From a virus, in the IMG/VR virus record IMGVR_UViG_3300036795_000039, positions 1-64,000 of that record: a DNA stretch of 64,000 nt. The stretch is one strand, 5' to 3'. Below the pieces are notes generated by a model. It made no database searches, was not told the origin of the DNA, and worked only from the letters and a program-made list of their open reading frames with translations. Numbering within the stretch: position 1 is the stretch's first letter; each line of letters begins with the position of its first letter. Shown here piece after piece: positions 44,932 to 50,937 of the stretch. The position numbers and the translations under genes are program-made.

Positions 44932-45477
44932 ATGGTGAAACAGAATCTAGCCAATAGGCTTGCCGCAGGGGGCTTTTGGGCACTACAGATCGGTTGGCTC
45001 AGCGTCGAGGTAGCCGACCATCTCAAGTCCGAGGGCACCACAGTTCCGATCGGAAGCGGTTCTCCTACAGAGGTTTTGACGGTCTGCACACTGGGTGCGT
45101 TCGAGCATTTCGTCAATGTCCATATGGACGACATGCGGATGAACGTCAAGGTGAAATTCGAGGAGCCGTCGCCGAAGCTGTACGACAAATACTGCCAGGA
45201 GATAACCCGTGAGCAGTGGGCGAAGCTACACCAGCATCCCACGTACGATCGGATCGCGCTGTGGCACAGCGATTCTGAGCATAGGCACGTATCCACGATA
45301 TGGACCGGCCTAGACGAGAACCACTGCGAGCCGCCGCATATCTTCGAGACAATGGTGGTCCACGTCCACGGCCAGAACCAGGGACACATTGCCAGAGTGT
45401 TCAAGACACGCAACCTCGCGGAGGCCCGCGCCGCGCACCACGAAGCCGTCGCTCTAGTCAAGGCAGGGCGTCTATAA
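44932..45477 (+). CDS. Hypothetical protein
   Basis: A 181-residue alpha/beta protein (ATG 44932 or GTG 44935, after AAGGA). It has a His-rich second half (HVHGQNQGHIARVF, AHHEAV) but no recognisable metal motif. It sits between the HTH gene and the conserved gene at 45522, behind the stem described at 44833. No family identified. Confidence 0.65.
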   Translation: MVKQNLANRLAAGGFWALQIGWLSVEVADHLKSEGTTVPIGSGSPTEVLTVCTLGAFEHFVNVHMDDMRMNVKVKFEEPSPKLYDKYCQEITREQWAKLHQHPTYDRIALWHSDSEHRHVSTIWTGLDENHCEPPHIFETMVVHVHGQNQGHIARVFKTRNLAEARAAHHEAVALVKAGRL

Positions 45478-45480
45478 AAA

Positions 45481-45514
45481 CAGCAACCAAATCGGTTGCG
45501 CAAGAGAGGAAACC
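45481..45514 (+). promoter_or_regulatory. Rightward copy of leader box B and purine-rich site
   Basis: CAGCAACCAAATCGGTTGCG followed by AGAGAGGAAACC, seven bases before the ATG at 45522. The only clear rightward copy of the leader element otherwise found in the leftward operon; box A and the variable hairpin are absent. Confidence 0.8.
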
Positions 45515-45521
45515 GAAAGAA

Positions 45522-46166
45522 ATGTCAACCACCTCAATGATGCAGATCGACGAGCTAGACGCGGAAACCCTGCGGATACCCGTCATCGGCACCAGTCCAC
45601 TTATCACCCACAACTGGTCAGAGAAGGCCAAGCGGATGATGCTGGAAAAGCAACAGGGACGTAAGAACCCGAAGGAAAACCGCGACCCGCAGGCCGAATT
45701 CGAGTCATCGAAGTACCGGATCTATGTGCCAAAAGCAAAGGGCGGTAAGCCCGTTGAAGCCTGCGGCGTGCCCGTCGTGGCATTCAAGTCGGCCACTACG
45801 TCAGCGGCCCGCTTCTACGACAAGTCCGTTTCCATGGTGTCGCTACGACAGTTCATGTTCTTCAAGGGCGTCGTAACCAAAGCCGACGCGCAAGAGCTGT
45901 TCCAGATCGTCGGGGAACCGGAGATGCGCGAGGACATGGTCACCGTTGGCATCAGCGGAACCGACTTGCGTTACCGCGCATGCTTTTACGAGTGGTCAAC
46001 CACCCTGCAAATCACCTACGTCAAAAGCTGCATCTCTCAGGGCAGCGTGTTGTCGTTGGTCGACGCGGGCGGCTTCGGTGTCGGTGTCGGGGAGTGGCGT
46101 CCAGAGAAAAACGGCCAGATGGGCTGCTACACCATCGACCGCAGTCGCGATATCGAGGTGCTGTAA
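45522..46166 (+). CDS. Conserved phage protein upstream of recombination genes
   Basis: A 214-residue protein. The opening IPVIGTSPLITHNWSEKAKR followed by KQQGRKNPKENRDPQAEFE is a pattern I associate with a widespread phage family of unknown function, often near recombination genes. Beta-rich C-terminal half. Start at 45522 after leader box B and AGAGAGGAAACC; the upstream open frame is non-coding. Confidence 0.7.
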   Translation: MSTTSMMQIDELDAETLRIPVIGTSPLITHNWSEKAKRMMLEKQQGRKNPKENRDPQAEFESSKYRIYVPKAKGGKPVEACGVPVVAFKSATTSAARFYDKSVSMVSLRQFMFFKGVVTKADAQELFQIVGEPEMREDMVTVGISGTDLRYRACFYEWSTTLQITYVKSCISQGSVLSLVDAGGFGVGVGEWRPEKNGQMGCYTIDRSRDIEVL

Positions 46167-46601
46167 ATGGCTTCTGTGCGTGAGGAATTGCGCCGCATCT
46201 ATACATCACAAGGGGGTGAGCTAACACCACAGGCTGTGGTGGATGCGGCGCGTCGGAAGAACTCACCTTTGAATTCCTACTTCGAGTGGGATGATCGCGT
46301 GGCTGGTGAGGCGTATCGAATCGTGCAGGCGCAGGACTTGATTCGTCGTCAGTTCAAGGTTTATGCGCGAGACAAGCGTGGCCCCAAGCACGTTCGCGAG
46401 TATGTCAGCGTCTACCAGGCCGGGGGTTCCGACACGGGCGCATACAGGCTCACTGAAGAGGTTGTGGTCGACCCTATTTCGGAGGCTATCCTGCTTCGAG
46501 AATTTCAGCGTGACATTGATAACTTGAAGCGGCGCTACGGTCACTTTAAGGAATTCGGTCGGCTCGTGAGAGAGGCGTTGGGAGAGGAGGATTCAGCGTA
46601 A
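46167..46601 (+). CDS. Conserved hypothetical protein paired with the preceding gene
   Basis: A 144-residue protein starting at the base after the previous stop. LTPQAVVDAARRKNSPLNSYFEWDDRVAGEAYR (about 20-53) is a recurrent phage motif, found with neighbours like the preceding gene. Helical C-terminus. Probably acts with that neighbour, in DNA metabolism by location. Confidence 0.7.
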   Translation: MASVREELRRIYTSQGGELTPQAVVDAARRKNSPLNSYFEWDDRVAGEAYRIVQAQDLIRRQFKVYARDKRGPKHVREYVSVYQAGGSDTGAYRLTEEVVVDPISEAILLREFQRDIDNLKRRYGHFKEFGRLVREALGEEDSA

Positions 46602-46604
46602 ACA

Positions 46605-46979
46605 TGGCAGGCGTGGCAGGCATGGCTAGGTTGGGTCCGGCAAGGCTCGGCTCGGCATGGCCCGGCAGGCGCGGCACGGCGTGGCACGGTATGGCCTGGC
46701 GCGGCAGGCATGGCTCGGCGCGGCCCGGCTTGGTGTGGTTGGGTATGGCAACGCTTGGCTGGGCAGGGCAGGCGTGGCGAGGCAAGGCGAGGCACGGCAG
46801 GGCGCGGCAGGGCAGGCGTGGCAAGGCCTGGCGGGGTTCGGCTTGGCTGGGTCCGGCATGGCCGGGTCCGGCATGGCCAGGCACGGCAGGCTCGGCGCGG
46901 CTAGGCACGGCTCGGCAAGGTGTGGGCATGGCGCTCGGCTTGGCTCGGTGTGGCATGGCTTGGTTTGGCAGGCAAGGAT
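46605..46979. repeat. Degenerate period-5 GGC-rich satellite
   Basis: About 375 bases in which GGC (or a close variant) recurs every five bases, with the other two positions varying among A, T, C and G. Because five is not a multiple of three, all frames on both strands stay largely open and read as Gly/Ala/Arg/Trp or Pro/His/Ala repeats. There are strand biases: G-rich on the plus strand, C-rich on the minus. It begins four bases after a stop codon and ends before a ribosome binding site. Confidence 0.9.
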
Positions 46980-46992
46980 AAGGGAGTGGGAT

Positions 46993-47130
46993 GTGTTGTT
47001 ACGGATAGGATCTCGTTACACCCTGGCGCAGGCGTGGCGAATCTTCAAGCGCGCCAGACAATTCGCAAATTTACGAGAAGACAGGGAGATCGAGCTGTGG
47101 CTAGTGGCAATACGTCGAGTGCGACCGTAG
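46993..47130 (+). CDS. Small basic helical protein
   Basis: A 45-residue protein from a GTG at 46993, preceded by AGGGAG. The pattern YTLAQAWRIFKRARQF..LREDRE.ELWL.AIRR is familiar from very small mycobacteriophage proteins. It overlaps the next gene by 34 bases. Unknown function. Confidence 0.62.
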   Translation: MLLRIGSRYTLAQAWRIFKRARQFANLREDREIELWLVAIRRVRP

Positions 47131-47456
47131 ACGACGTGATCTGCGGGGCAAAGGAATTGATTGTCCGGTACGGCTGGCAGCGCGGCGCGTGGCCACCGTT
47201 TGGACCTGCACCACGTTGCCTGCGGGCCGCGCTGTACACGGCGGCAGGAAATCTGGATTGCCTTGCCACACGGACGCATACCGACGCGTTGCGGCGCGTC
47301 TCTGGGGCAATCTATAAGCCCGGCAGCGTCGGCGGCATCACCGACTGGGAATTCCGTAAGGACACCAACCGGGACGTCGTTATCTCTGTGCTACAGAAGG
47401 CAATTGAGCTAGGGCCAACCGAGCCTGAGATACGCGGCGAACTGTGGCCAGTCTGA
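47097..47456 (+). CDS. DUF6197-like protein
   Basis: A 119-residue protein from a GTG at 47097 after AGGGAG. The helix AKELIVRYGWQRGAW, then CLRAALYTAAG and the closing WEFRKDTNRDVVISVLQKAIE resemble DUF6197, a family of unknown function in actinobacteria and their phages. Family match is moderate. Confidence 0.6.
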   Translation: MASGNTSSATVDDVICGAKELIVRYGWQRGAWPPFGPAPRCLRAALYTAAGNLDCLATRTHTDALRRVSGAIYKPGSVGGITDWEFRKDTNRDVVISVLQKAIELGPTEPEIRGELWPV

Positions 47457-47842
47457 TGGACAAGCTGCACTATAAGGGTGATTGCCGAAAGTTCGTGCCT
47501 AACAGGATCGTTGGGCCGGACACCTGGGGCGCATGGTACATCCCCGTCACGGCGCACTACTTCAACGGGATCACCACGATCTTTTACAAGCCGGTCCCGC
47601 CCGACAAGCTACCACCACAGTGTGTCGAAATGTCGAAACAGGTTGTGGCGCAACAGCAACAAGGAAAGGTGCAACAATGGCCGCGAGACGGAAGCGGACC
47701 CTCACCAGAGCCGAGGTCGCAGCCGCAATCGCTGCAATACCAAATCTTGCGGCGCAGCGCCGGGAAGACGGGCGCGTCCAAAGGTTCAGGGCTCACGAAA
47801 TCGCAACGCGAGTTGCTGAAGCGTTTCAAGAAGCGGGGATAG
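47456..47842 (+). CDS. Hypothetical protein overlapping a second gene
   Basis: A 128-residue protein whose ATG overlaps the previous stop (TGATG). The first 60 residues (MDKLHYKGDCRKFVPNRIVG) look like a normal domain with aromatic strands. The C-terminal 55 residues are encoded in the same bases as the 47677-47856 gene in another frame. That tail is Gln/Ser/Pro-rich, so it may be a late extension. The gene boundary is uncertain. Confidence 0.55.
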   Translation: MDKLHYKGDCRKFVPNRIVGPDTWGAWYIPVTAHYFNGITTIFYKPVPPDKLPPQCVEMSKQVVAQQQQGKVQQWPRDGSGPSPEPRSQPQSLQYQILRRSAGKTGASKGSGLTKSQRELLKRFKKRG

Positions 47843-47856
47843 AGGTGAGGCAATGA
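47677..47856 (+). CDS. Small basic DNA-binding-like protein
   Basis: A 59-residue protein. AAGGAAAGG precedes the ATG. The sequence ARRKRTLTRAEVAAAIAAIP, ending FQEAGIEVRQ, is a basic N-terminus and helical body compatible with nucleic-acid binding. It lies inside the preceding gene's 3' end in another frame and overlaps the next start (ATGA). Confidence 0.62.
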   Translation: MAARRKRTLTRAEVAAAIAAIPNLAAQRREDGRVQRFRAHEIATRVAEAFQEAGIEVRQ

Positions 47857-48518
47857 GCGACGAAGCACGCAGGGCCGCAGGGATTCTCACACAATGTAAA
47901 TGGTTGCGTGACAGCATCAGCAAGTGGGAGGCGCAGGCCAAGGAAATCCTGGCCCGCGAGCTGACCGGCGGCGAGCGCACCAAGGCGGTCGCGGCGGATG
48001 GCACTGAGATCGGTTCTGTCACAAGGGCAGAGGGCGCACGTTCGATGCAGATCGACAACGAGGCCGGGTTTCTGGCGTGGGTGAAGCAACGCTATCCCAC
48101 GGAGGTAGAAGAAACAGTGCGTCCGGCGTTCGTCAAGCTGTGCGCCGAGAAGGTGAAGCTGCTAGGCGGTTTGCCGGATGCGAATGGTGAACTGTGCCCG
48201 CATGTTTCAATGGTGCGCGCCGACCCGAAGACCAGCGTGTCACCGCTATCTAATGACGACCGCGCGCTGATCGAGGCGCTGTTTAGGCAACACACTTGGG
48301 AGAACCTGACAACCATGGTTATGTCGGATAATCCCGCGCTTCCGCCTGCGCCACAACAGGATTGCTCGCTGGGTGATGCCGTCACTGTCCCAAAAGGGAC
48401 AGTCGAACCCGAACCCGGCACTGAGCCTGAGCCGTTCATTGAAGAGGGACCGCCAAACTGGGCTGAGTCCAACACGTTTGAGACTTCTGACGCTGTACAC
48501 CAGCGGCGGATGAGATAA
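47853..48518 (+). CDS. Hypothetical protein of the recombination operon
   Basis: A 221-residue protein: a helical N-terminal 60 residues (WLRDSISKWEAQAKEILARE), a middle alpha/beta domain (about 60-120), and an acidic Pro-rich C-terminus. Palindrome site 7 is inside the tail, encoding TVPKGTV. Translationally coupled to the preceding gene. It lies before the wHTH and ERF genes, so a role with the annealing protein is possible. Confidence 0.65.
   Translation: MSDEARRAAGILTQCKWLRDSISKWEAQAKEILARELTGGERTKAVAADGTEIGSVTRAEGARSMQIDNEAGFLAWVKQRYPTEVEETVRPAFVKLCAEKVKLLGGLPDANGELCPHVSMVRADPKTSVSPLSNDDRALIEALFRQHTWENLTTMVMSDNPALPPAPQQDCSLGDAVTVPKGTVEPEPGTEPEPFIEEGPPNWAESNTFETSDAVHQRRMR
48384..48403 (+). 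promoter_or_regulatory. Palindromic operator-like site 7
   Basis: ACTGTCCCAAAAGGGACAGT inside the 47853-48518 gene; it shares the AAAA centre of sites 3 and 5 but has both outer arms exact. Confidence 0.75.
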
Positions 48519-48539: not shown

Positions 48540-48878
48540 GTGAAGATCACCATTAAGCAGGACGGCGATATCTGCATGGAAACCAACGGTGCCACACCGG
48601 CAGAGATAGCCGGAGTGATACTGAGCGTGCAGCGTGAGCTACGTAAGACCGATTTGACAAAGCTGGCCGAGGACCGGCCAGTTGATTTGAGCGATATGCA
48701 GGGCGCGACGTATGACTGGATGATCGCGCACGACAAGGATCAGGGCATTCACATATCCAGTATCGCAAGAGCGTTCAGCATCTCGAATGGTGCTGCGGGA
48801 CAACGCTGCTACCAACTAGTCAAGGACGGCTTCGCAACCAAGATCTGCAACGGTCGGTACCGCGCGGTGACGCAATGA
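48540..48878 (+). CDS. Winged-helix DNA-binding protein
   Basis: A 112-residue protein. Residues about 55-110 read as a winged helix (TYDWMIAHDKDQGIHISSIARAFSIS, then a recognition helix and the wing FATKICNGRYRAV). The GTG start follows AGAGAGGAAACCGA, the same purine-rich element as in the leftward operon. Likely a transcription regulator; a second candidate palindrome binder. Confidence 0.68.
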   Translation: MKITIKQDGDICMETNGATPAEIAGVILSVQRELRKTDLTKLAEDRPVDLSDMQGATYDWMIAHDKDQGIHISSIARAFSISNGAAGQRCYQLVKDGFATKICNGRYRAVTQ

Positions 48879-49867
48879 CTGAGCCCGTTAAGAAACCACC
48901 GGCCAAGCGGGCACCCCGACGTGCCAAGCCGAAACCGGAGGTAGCGGTGACACCGACACCGGATTCGGAAACCGTTGGGGACAATCGGACCACTATTTCC
49001 GGTTCCGGCGTTGGGCCGATGCTGGTAACCCAAGGACCACCACAGGAGAAGATATATTTGACTGTTCACGAATTGTGGTCCCGTGTAATGGAATCCGTTC
49101 GCTCTGTGGCCAAGGGTGACTTCAATGAGGATCAGGGCTTCAAGTTTCGAGGTGTTGATTCGGTGGTTGACCAGGTCGGCCCGGCGTTGCGCACTTTTGG
49201 CGTACATATCAGGCCCCGGCGAATCCTTGAGCACCACGCTACGGAGTACACCACCAAGCGCGGCTCGCGCATGGTTAACCGTGTGGTTCGTGTGGAGTGG
49301 GAAGTCACTGGACCGCAAGGTGATTCGTTTCTTGGCGAGTCGATGGGTGAGGCAGCCGACGCCGGGGACAAGTCCTTGACCAAGGCGCAGTCTGTGGCGT
49401 ACAGGGTGTATCTGCTTCAGGCGCTTAGCATTCCGACCGGCGAACGCGATGCCGACGCTGACGCTCACGAGCGTGACACGCCAGCGGCCAGCGAGGGCCA
49501 TTACTGGGATCAGCAGCAGGAGCAGCAATACAGCCGCCAGCGGCCATCTGGGGGCCAGGACGCGGCACGCCAAGCCCAAGCCGGGGAGGACAACCAGGCG
49601 GCACAAGTGGACAACGAGGATGCCCGCAAGGAAATGTGGCGTGTCGCAAAAGGATTGGGCTGGGAATGGGGCAAGCTCGCGGCCAGGTTCAAAGCCGATC
49701 ACGGCACCGAATCCAACAGGGCACTACCCGCCGTCATCAACGCCTTCACTAACACGTTGATTAGTGAGGCAGAGGCCGAGGAGGATAAAGCTAAGGCGAC
49801 GGCGGCAGAAGTGTTGGGGGCCAAGGAAGTTGCACCCGACGAGGCGCAGCCTGGCGGTGTGCTCTGA
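48875..49867 (+). CDS. erf: ERF-family single-strand annealing protein
   Basis: A 330-residue recombinase that anneals complementary single strands. The ERF core spans about 65-190: FRGVDSVVDQVGPALRTFGVHI, then VNRVVRVEWEVT, SMGEAADAGDKSLTKAQSVAYR and ALSIPTGERDAD. The basic Lys/Pro-rich N-terminus and a Gln-rich linker (about 210-240) flank it. An extra C-terminal helical domain follows. Coupled to both neighbours. No matching exonuclease gene is evident next to it. Confidence 0.85.
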   Translation: MTEPVKKPPAKRAPRRAKPKPEVAVTPTPDSETVGDNRTTISGSGVGPMLVTQGPPQEKIYLTVHELWSRVMESVRSVAKGDFNEDQGFKFRGVDSVVDQVGPALRTFGVHIRPRRILEHHATEYTTKRGSRMVNRVVRVEWEVTGPQGDSFLGESMGEAADAGDKSLTKAQSVAYRVYLLQALSIPTGERDADADAHERDTPAASEGHYWDQQQEQQYSRQRPSGGQDAARQAQAGEDNQAAQVDNEDARKEMWRVAKGLGWEWGKLAARFKADHGTESNRALPAVINAFTNTLISEAEAEEDKAKATAAEVLGAKEVAPDEAQPGGVL

Positions 49868-50937
49868 TGGGCAGCGACGTTCAGGTCACCGAGACTGGGC
49901 TAATCCTGCCGGACAACATGACGTTTGAAGACTGGGCAGAGTATGGCCAACGGCTGCAACGCATGTCGCGAGCTGTCATGTGGTGGTTAGGTGACTGGTG
50001 GCGCTTCGGTGTGCGGACATACGGCACGAGCGAAGCCAAAGCGGCACTTACCAGATACTCATATCAGACATGTATGAACGCCGGGAGCGTGGCGCGACAG
50101 TTTGAATTCTCCCGACGTCGGGAGAATGTGCGCTGGGAAGAGCACAAAGTGCTGTGTTCCAGAGTGTTAAGTGATGAAGACCAGGACCGTTTACTAGACG
50201 AGTGGGAGGTTACTCAACCGACGACGGCGGCGGCACGGACTCAGGCTAGCAAGCTAAAACGCGCGTACAGGCTGGACGCACGCGAACCTAGTGAAATACC
50301 AGGGGAGTGCGCGACGATTTCCCTTGCCTCGTATGAGGATTGGCTGCCGAGCCAACCTCATTGCGACCTGTTACTAACCGATCCGCCGTACTCTACTGAC
50401 ATGGATGATATCGAATCCTTCGCAAACCGTTGGCTGCCAATGGCATTGAATAAGGTAGCCCCGACTGGCCGCGCATATGTATGCATCGGAGCATACCCAG
50501 ATGAGCTGCGTACCTATCTGAGTGTGCCTGTCCCACAGCACCTTACGCTGGCTAACGTGTTGGTGTGGACATACCGAAACACCATAGGGCCTTCGCCGGA
50601 TTATGATTACAAACTCAACTGGCAGGCCATCCTGTACTACCGTGGACAGGATGCGTTGAAGCTGCGTTGCCCAGACATGGTGGAACAGTTCACCGTTCAA
50701 GACATCAACGCACCGGATGGACGGCGCGGCGACCGCTGGCACGCATGGCAGAAACCCGATGAGCTAGGCTCACGATTCGTTCGGCACGCAACACAATTGG
50801 GCGACCTAGTGCTAGACCCGTTCGCGGGCACCGGGACTTTTCTGCTCGCTGCGGCAGCGTTGGGGCGCAAGGCATTTGGCTGCGAAATCAGTGAAGCGAA
50901 TCTGGATATCGCAGTAGAGCGAGGATGCCAGCTATGA
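49867..50937 (+). CDS. DNA methyltransferase (class beta, N4/N6 type)
   Basis: A 356-residue enzyme. LLLTD172PPY (motif IV) precedes VLD317PFAGTGTFLLAA (motif I), the order that defines class beta amino-methyltransferases. The first 150 residues are a helical DNA-binding region with RRRENVRWEEH. It probably modifies adenine or cytosine amino groups, protecting phage DNA from restriction or altering gene control. No cognate restriction enzyme is clearly recognisable, although the next gene is a candidate nuclease. Confidence 0.85.
   Translation: MGSDVQVTETGLILPDNMTFEDWAEYGQRLQRMSRAVMWWLGDWWRFGVRTYGTSEAKAALTRYSYQTCMNAGSVARQFEFSRRRENVRWEEHKVLCSRVLSDEDQDRLLDEWEVTQPTTAAARTQASKLKRAYRLDAREPSEIPGECATISLASYEDWLPSQPHCDLLLTDPPYSTDMDDIESFANRWLPMALNKVAPTGRAYVCIGAYPDELRTYLSVPVPQHLTLANVLVWTYRNTIGPSPDYDYKLNWQAILYYRGQDALKLRCPDMVEQFTVQDINAPDGRRGDRWHAWQKPDELGSRFVRHATQLGDLVLDPFAGTGTFLLAAAALGRKAFGCEISEANLDIAVERGCQL

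What the first reader, a model, noticed from the sequence alone, without database searches (positions are those of the whole stretch)
46605..46979. 375-bp degenerate period-5 satellite between early genes
GGC recurs every five bases for some 75 units with free drift at the other two positions, yet phase is maintained. All frames remain open on both strands by arithmetic rather than coding. Drift with kept period argues for selection on spacing or strand composition (G-rich plus, C-rich minus), not recent slippage. It could be a replication origin, a transcriptional pause or R-loop zone, a protein array, or a non-coding RNA. No origin or replication gene is otherwise visible.
Basis: partly seen in the sequence, partly recalled or inferred. 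Interest (0 to 1): 0.85.

Follow-up and report, generated by a model that had tools for sequence, protein, structure and literature searches.

The report
Phage VIPR guide-RNA array aimed at integrases
The strange five-base repeat is not junk or a gene but a row of gapped guide RNAs belonging to a VIPR system, a recently described CRISPR-like weapon of phages, and at least one guide appears to spell out a conserved part of the integrase genes of rival mycobacterial phages.

Summary
The repeat is real: 75 GGC-NN units at 46610-46980. The third base is GGY, and the NN bases are hypervariable. Such arrays occur in at least 120 viral stretches, most of them beside one protein family. Here that gene is 45522-46166; its family profile matches the solved 'SUSP1 Vipr protein' (PDB 36pp) at E=1e-37. 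This is therefore a VIPR system (bioRxiv 2026.04.26.720920, PMC13142463): a RAMP-type Vipr protein plus vrRNAs whose NN dinucleotides pair with DNA, skipping one target base per repeat. Decoded by that rule, module M7 (46889-46934) spells A-M-T-L-D-V-Y-A-D, the tyrosine-integrase C-terminal motif. It hits 14 of 150 Mycobacteriales genomes at <=1 mismatch, against 0 for reversed, skip-2 and unrelated-guide patterns. M5 matches serine integrases of Mycobacterium abscessus prophages exactly. The other guides have no target found; the phage itself is not targeted. In cluster F mycobacteriophages GGC stays fixed while NN diverges and whole modules come and go. Coding, origin and satellite readings are disfavoured. 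Expression and function are untested.

The parts
45522..46166 (+). vipr gene (214 aa, PHROG_4652), RAMP-type RNA-binding protein
   Evidence: Profile of 73 relatives hits PDB 36pp 'SUSP1 Vipr protein' E=1e-37; the single sequence hits it at E=0.0023; PHROG_4652 E=3.9e-38. The start codon is inferred.
46167..46601 (+). second gene of the cassette, candidate vipr-accessory protein (vap), PHROG_15946, 144 aa
   Evidence: Family found in 42 ORFs of the loci examined, next to vipr and array; no Pfam match. Identity with the published vap1-6 could not be checked.
46606..46975 (+). vrRNA array: GGY-NN units, divided by 4-base GGCA units into modules
   Evidence: Unit parse; class statistics; sequence
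46619..46663 (+). module M2, 9 NN: AT TA TG CC AA TC TC AT CC
   Evidence: 8-dinucleotide scan of viral contigs gave only chance-like hits that do not extend
46668..46702 (+). module M3, 7 NN: GC AC GT AC AT CT GC
   Evidence: scan with flanking A gave six scattered hits without a credible common target
46707..46766 (+). module M4, 12 NN: AT TC GC CC TT GT TG AT AA TT TG AG
   Evidence: no target found
46771..46810 (+). module M5, 8 NN: GT GA AA GA AC AG GC AG; decoded V-D/E-N/K-D/E-T-S/R-A-S/R, exact in serine integrases 'YVDNDTSAS' of M. abscessus prophages
   Evidence: none in 150-298 Mycobacteriales species genomes
46815..46884 (+). module M6, 14 NN: GT AA CT GG TC TT TG CC AT CG CC AT CA AC
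   Evidence: no target found
46889..46934 (+). module M7, 9 NN (one extra G at 46924): TC GC TA AC TC AA GT AT GC; reverse-complement codons A-M-T-L-D-V-Y-A-D of tyrosine integrases
   Evidence: 14 of 150 Mycobacteriales genomes at <=1 mismatch, 2 exact, 11 of 12 fetched sites in integrase ORFs; controls 0 of 150
46937..46966 (+). last module M7b, 6 NN: TT TC GT AT TT TT
   Evidence: not searched
46604..46981 (+). ORF of 125 aa, judged spurious (stops are rare in GGCNN by arithmetic)
   Evidence: TAG stops fall at random over frames across 64 arrays, and related arrays differ by 5-bp indels

Best explanation
The array and the two genes before it form a VIPR system. Inferred from the paper: the array is transcribed and gives short vrRNAs, each about one GGCA-bounded module; Vipr subunits coat the RNA, each holding a GGY and exposing the NN pair; the complex binds double-stranded DNA wherever the NN pairs match at three-base steps, skipping one base, and represses transcription. 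Shown here by computation: the protein family, the GGY/NN code, the modular order, and a codon-phased match of one guide (M7) to tyrosine-integrase genes and of another (M5) to serine-integrase genes of mycobacterial prophages. Inferred here: that binding silences those integrases and so hampers lysogeny or maintenance of rival phages.
For: Vipr homology, E=1e-37. The GGC pattern alone retrieved 120 viral stretches, and 81 of these also hold the Vipr family, 26 both protein families, with the array beside it on the same strand in nearly all (counted, leaving out eight loci fetched otherwise). GGY rather than GGC (T 12%) was seen before the paper was found. GGCA spacing: gaps of 8-13 units seen 196 times against about 67 expected. 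Cluster F phages: GGC changes 3/138 against NN changes 46/88 (Florinda vs Saal), 1/150 against 18/97 (Donkeykong), and a whole module missing in ByChance. M7 integrase match with controls; in shuffles of the window's own units 1 of 20,000 reached the score of the mechanical parse. M5 match in M. abscessus prophages, the host group of the nearest structural-gene relatives. No self-target. Published mechanism: PMC13142463.
Against: No RNA data. Four of the seven modules were searched without a target and one was not searched. M3, M5 and M7b are shorter than the 9-16 repeats reported. No structured 3' tail was recognised in the window (no Rfam match), whereas SUSP1 vrRNAs have one. The M7 reading spans an irregular unit (extra G at 46924) and its motif was recognised after the scan. 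M5 is absent from 150 Mycobacteriales genomes.
Confidence: 0.93

Rival explanations
1. The array encodes a translated low-complexity protein (G-x-A-W/R-x repeats), as annotated in some phages (Donkeykong gp48, Pipp gp43).
For: ORF 46604-46981 is open from ATG to stop; some relatives are annotated so.
Against: Across 64 arrays with at least one TAG, a TAG-free frame is no commoner than chance (52 observed, 51.1 expected); close relatives differ by 5-bp indels; Saal, SwagPigglett and Brocalys have no annotated gene there.
Confidence: 0.03
2. A replication origin or other cis-acting DNA element (pause, R-loop or G-rich zone) of the early region.
For: It lies in an early operon near an ERF annealing protein; the G-rich strand is the coding strand.
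Against: It travels with vipr into unrelated contexts, for example between tail-chaperone and tape-measure genes in Gordonia phages Ecliptus and ODay; such roles do not need C/T at position 3, GGCA phasing, hypervariable NN or decoded targets.
Confidence: 0.02
3. An old microsatellite that drifts neutrally.
For: Tandem repetition; simple GGCAC/GGCGC satellites exist in high-GC bacterial genomes.
Against: GGC is nearly unchanged while NN changes freely between close relatives; GGCA spacing is non-random; conserved protein partner.
Confidence: 0.01
4. It is a VIPR array, but the integrase matches are coincidence and the true targets are unknown satellites or phages.
For: Only two of seven modules give matches; scans of viral contigs for M2, M3, M4 and M6 gave chance-like hits.
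Against: M7: 14 of 150 genomes against 0 for three controls, and 11 of 12 fetched sites are the same codons of one gene family; shuffles of the window's units seldom reach it.
Confidence: 0.25

Closest known systems
VIPR systems (Viral Interference Programmable Repeat), Escherichia phage SUSP1 and Pseudomonas fulva prophage, PMC13142463
   Same: RAMP-type Vipr protein, GGY/NN tandem repeats in intergenic RNA, adjacent small accessory gene, phage location, one-base skip with the skip at codon wobble positions, predicted targets in competing phages or prophages.
   Different: Here the guides form one continuous array divided only by 4-base GGCA units, with no recognised structured tail between them; several modules have 6-8 repeats rather than 9-16; predicted targets are integrase genes; the host group is actinobacterial. 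The published type could not be assigned (supplement not readable here).
Class 1 CRISPR-Cas (Cas7-type RAMP backbone on crRNA)
   Same: RAMP-family protein, modular guide array, module gain and loss.
   Different: Contiguous spacers, long repeats, many cas genes; none of these here.
Tweety gp54 tandem tetrapeptide repeats (PMC2884959)
   Same: Variable tandem repeat in a cluster F mycobacteriophage.
   Different: A 12-bp coding repeat in a translated protein; unrelated.

Membership tests
VIPR system | Vipr protein of the RAMP lineage | tested here: met
   Family profile to PDB 36pp SUSP1 Vipr E=1e-37; single sequence E=0.0023.
VIPR system | vrRNA of alternating GGY and hypervariable NN | tested here: met
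   At DNA level:
VIPR system | 9-16 repeats per vrRNA | tested here: inconclusive
   M2 9, M4 12, M6 14, M7 9; but M3 7, M5 8, M7b 6. RNA ends unknown.
VIPR system | Structured invariable 3' tail on the vrRNA | tested here: inconclusive
   No Rfam match in window 45400-47900. Cluster F arrays end in a conserved GGCTGG-GCAA-CCAGCC inverted repeat; no tail seen between modules here.
VIPR system | Adjacent vap gene | tested here: inconclusive
   PHROG_15946 gene beside vipr in the window and in 26 of 120 pattern-fetched loci; not comparable with published vap1-6.
VIPR system | DNA recognition with a one-base skip | tested here: met
   By computation only: M7 skip-1 14/150 genomes, skip-2 0/150, reversed 0/150. 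No binding assay.
VIPR system | vrRNA expressed and bound by Vipr | not testable with these tools
   Needs RNA sequencing and pull-down.
CRISPR-Cas | Long repeats with contiguous spacers and cas genes | tested here: not met
   Units are five bases; no PADLOC match of weight for either protein.

The most novel reading that the evidence does not exclude
A tail-less 'poly-guide' form of VIPR: one transcript carries six or seven gapped guides separated only by GGCA marks, where the RNA is cut or the Vipr coat restarts, and the guide set is aimed at conserved motifs of both tyrosine and serine integrases, so that wobble-blind guides disable lysogeny of many rival phages at once. Guides are gained and lost as whole modules, as in cluster F phages, implying an unknown way of acquiring them.
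Probability: 0.4. Interest if true: 0.85.

Novelty: new member of a known kind. Interest (0 to 1): 0.72.

Why it matters
VIPR was described only in 2026 and proposed as an ancestor of CRISPR. This locus adds an actinophage example with its own guide set. It shows that such arrays are common and often mis-annotated as genes. It gives a rule (GGCA every ~50 nt) for cutting arrays into guides, and it supplies decodable targets: conserved integrase codons of rival phages. It makes testable how phages choose targets and how gapped guides are acquired.

Tried and rejected
Coding test by frame-specific stop avoidance: no signal. Literature search for GGCNN, pentanucleotide or Tweety-type repeats: nothing relevant. 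tblastn of the 125-aa ORF: no match, probably because of the low-complexity filter. Local search of 473 guides against 2.1 Mb of fetched DNA with skip 0-3: no excess over unit-shuffled guides. Half-module scans of M4 and M6 in viral contigs: hits do not extend; 3-mismatch searches in 150 genomes: none. M2 and M3 scans: no credible target. UmaThurman module 2 looked integrase-like by eye but gave 0 of 150. Before the PDB hit I considered TRAP-like rings, annealing-protein footprints, G-quadruplexes, primase sites and diversity-generating retroelements; all were dropped once the Vipr gene was identified. Rfam: no match.

Full report
Observation. The window is part of a 67,416-base virus record. 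At 46604-46981 there are 62 GGC in 378 bases, 42 of 61 spacings being exactly five. A simple parser (GGC units stepped by 5, with 4 or 6 allowed at a cost) gives 75 units at 46610-46980, score 155, while shuffled sequence of 40 loci gives no array at the threshold.

A class, not a curiosity. Among these and four other sources, 81 arrays scored 60 or more. Over them the first three positions are G 92%, G 90%, C 84% with T 12% (so GGY), and the last two are close to uniform. Amber stops, the only stops the pattern allows easily, fall at random over the three frames (52 arrays with a TAG-free frame, 51.1 expected). The array is therefore not under coding constraint as a class.

Superstructure. 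The four-base units are mostly GGCA and recur every 8-13 pentamers (196 such gaps against about 67 expected by random placement). In the window this gives modules M2-M7b. Some relatives use variant marks: GGCG-TTC in L015, GGCA-GTT in L089. In L091 a ~40-base repeat also punctuates the array.

Partner proteins. Iterative profile searches showed that the gene two places upstream (family A, 45522-46166) is present in most loci fetched by the DNA pattern alone, and the gene at 46167-46601 (family B) in 42 ORFs. Leaving out the eight loci fetched otherwise, 81 of 120 hold A and 26 hold both. A lies next to the array, or one gene away when B lies between, on the same strand in nearly all. A is PHROG_4652 and B is PHROG_15946, both of unknown function, without Pfam, NCBIfam or PADLOC assignments worth using. 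In Gordonia phages Ecliptus and ODay the A-array-B set sits with HTH genes between tail-chaperone and tape-measure genes, so it moves as a cassette.

Identification. A profile of 73 A proteins hits one solved structure, PDB 36pp 'SUSP1 Vipr protein', at E=1e-37 over the whole domain. The window protein alone hits it at E=0.0023, aligning through the C-terminal GVGEWRP region. The paper describing it (PMC13142463) reports VIPR: a RAMP-type Vipr protein, an accessory gene, and vrRNAs of alternating GGY and NN, where the NN pairs read double-stranded DNA with one skipped base per step, the skip usually at codon wobble positions, mostly against rival phages. The sequence statistics above were obtained before this paper was found. 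They agree with it, including the pyrimidine at position 3.

Evolution of the array. In cluster F mycobacteriophages with near-identical upstream flanks, Florinda differs from Saal at 3 of 138 GGC positions but 46 of 88 NN positions, and Donkeykong at 1 of 150 against 18 of 97. ByChance lacks one whole module. SwagPigglett and BobaPhett have one extra pentamer. The last module is kept in all, the first in most, while inner ones are replaced. This is strong evidence that GGC is scaffold and NN is content.

Targets. M7 (46889-46934; one extra G at 46924) decodes to TCnGCnTAnACnTCnAAnGTnATnGC, the complement of A-M-T-L-D-V-Y-A-D. An unbiased scan of viral contigs with its first seven pairs plus the GGCA base gave 111 stretches, many from one unrelated phage family, but including actinobacterial-type integrases. 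In 150 Mycobacteriales genomes the 18-base pattern has 14 matches at up to one mismatch, two of them exact. Of the 12 fetched, 11 are the 'AMTLDVYADL' motif of tyrosine integrases. The reversed pattern, the same guide with two skipped bases, and an unrelated guide from phage UmaThurman each gave none in the same 150 genomes. Shuffling the window's own units reached the mechanically parsed score (16 of 18) once in 20,000, and no other of 114 arrays came near. The motif was recognised after the scan, so this is strong but not pre-registered evidence.

M5 (46771-46810) decodes to V-D/E-N/K-D/E-T-S/R-A-S/R. Its 16 bases, and the flanking A of each neighbouring GGCA, match serine integrases 'YVDNDTSASKGRRP' in phase. 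One of those contigs (L301) is 93-97% identical to M. abscessus prophages prophi86-1 and prophiT49-2. The window's terminase and portal genes are also closest to M. abscessus prophages. Against this, M5 has no exact match in 150 Mycobacteriales species genomes, and scans of this length give about 10-20 chance hits. I rate M5 moderate. M2, M3, M4 and M6 have no credible target. The phage's own genome has no match above chance level and no integrase-like motif by a simple pattern search.

Mechanism and limits. Shown by computation: protein family, code, modules, hypervariability, integrase matches. Taken from the paper: RNA-protein complex, DNA binding, transcriptional repression. Inferred here: one module is roughly one guide, GGCA marks the boundary, and silencing integrases hinders rival lysogeny. 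Not tested: expression, RNA ends, tail, role of family B, VIPR type.

Verdict. A new member of a very recently described kind, with decodable guides. Interest is high for the field because the targets can be tested directly.

Noticed in passing
L122:5911-6297, L121:6616-6885, L252:881-1045: Published phage records annotate VIPR arrays as hypothetical proteins (Donkeykong gp48, Pipp gp43, BobaPhett gp51), while Saal, SwagPigglett and Brocalys leave them unannotated: likely mis-annotation.
   Followed up: partly
L157:2426-4000 (Aureimonas ureilytica genome): A bacterial genome contig carries Vipr, family B and a 68-unit array with GGCA spacing, in an alphaproteobacterium.
   Followed up: partly
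L091:1956-3546: A 325-unit array in which a ~40-base direct repeat (GCACGGGAGCAGCAGCATCCGGCG-YAAAGGGATGGAC) recurs every few modules; no Rfam match. Could be a tail or processing element.
   Followed up: no
L122, L123, L251-L257, 3' end of arrays: Cluster F arrays end in a conserved inverted repeat GGCTGG-GCAA-CCAGCC, a possible vrRNA tail hairpin or terminator; not seen in the window.
   Followed up: no
L015:1981-2353 and L089:3673-3987: Module marks differ between phages: GGCG-TTC in L015 and GGCA-GTT in L089 instead of GGCA-GGC.
   Followed up: no
window 48875-50937: ERF-type single-strand annealing protein followed by an N6/N4 DNA methyltransferase, downstream of the cassette.
   Followed up: no
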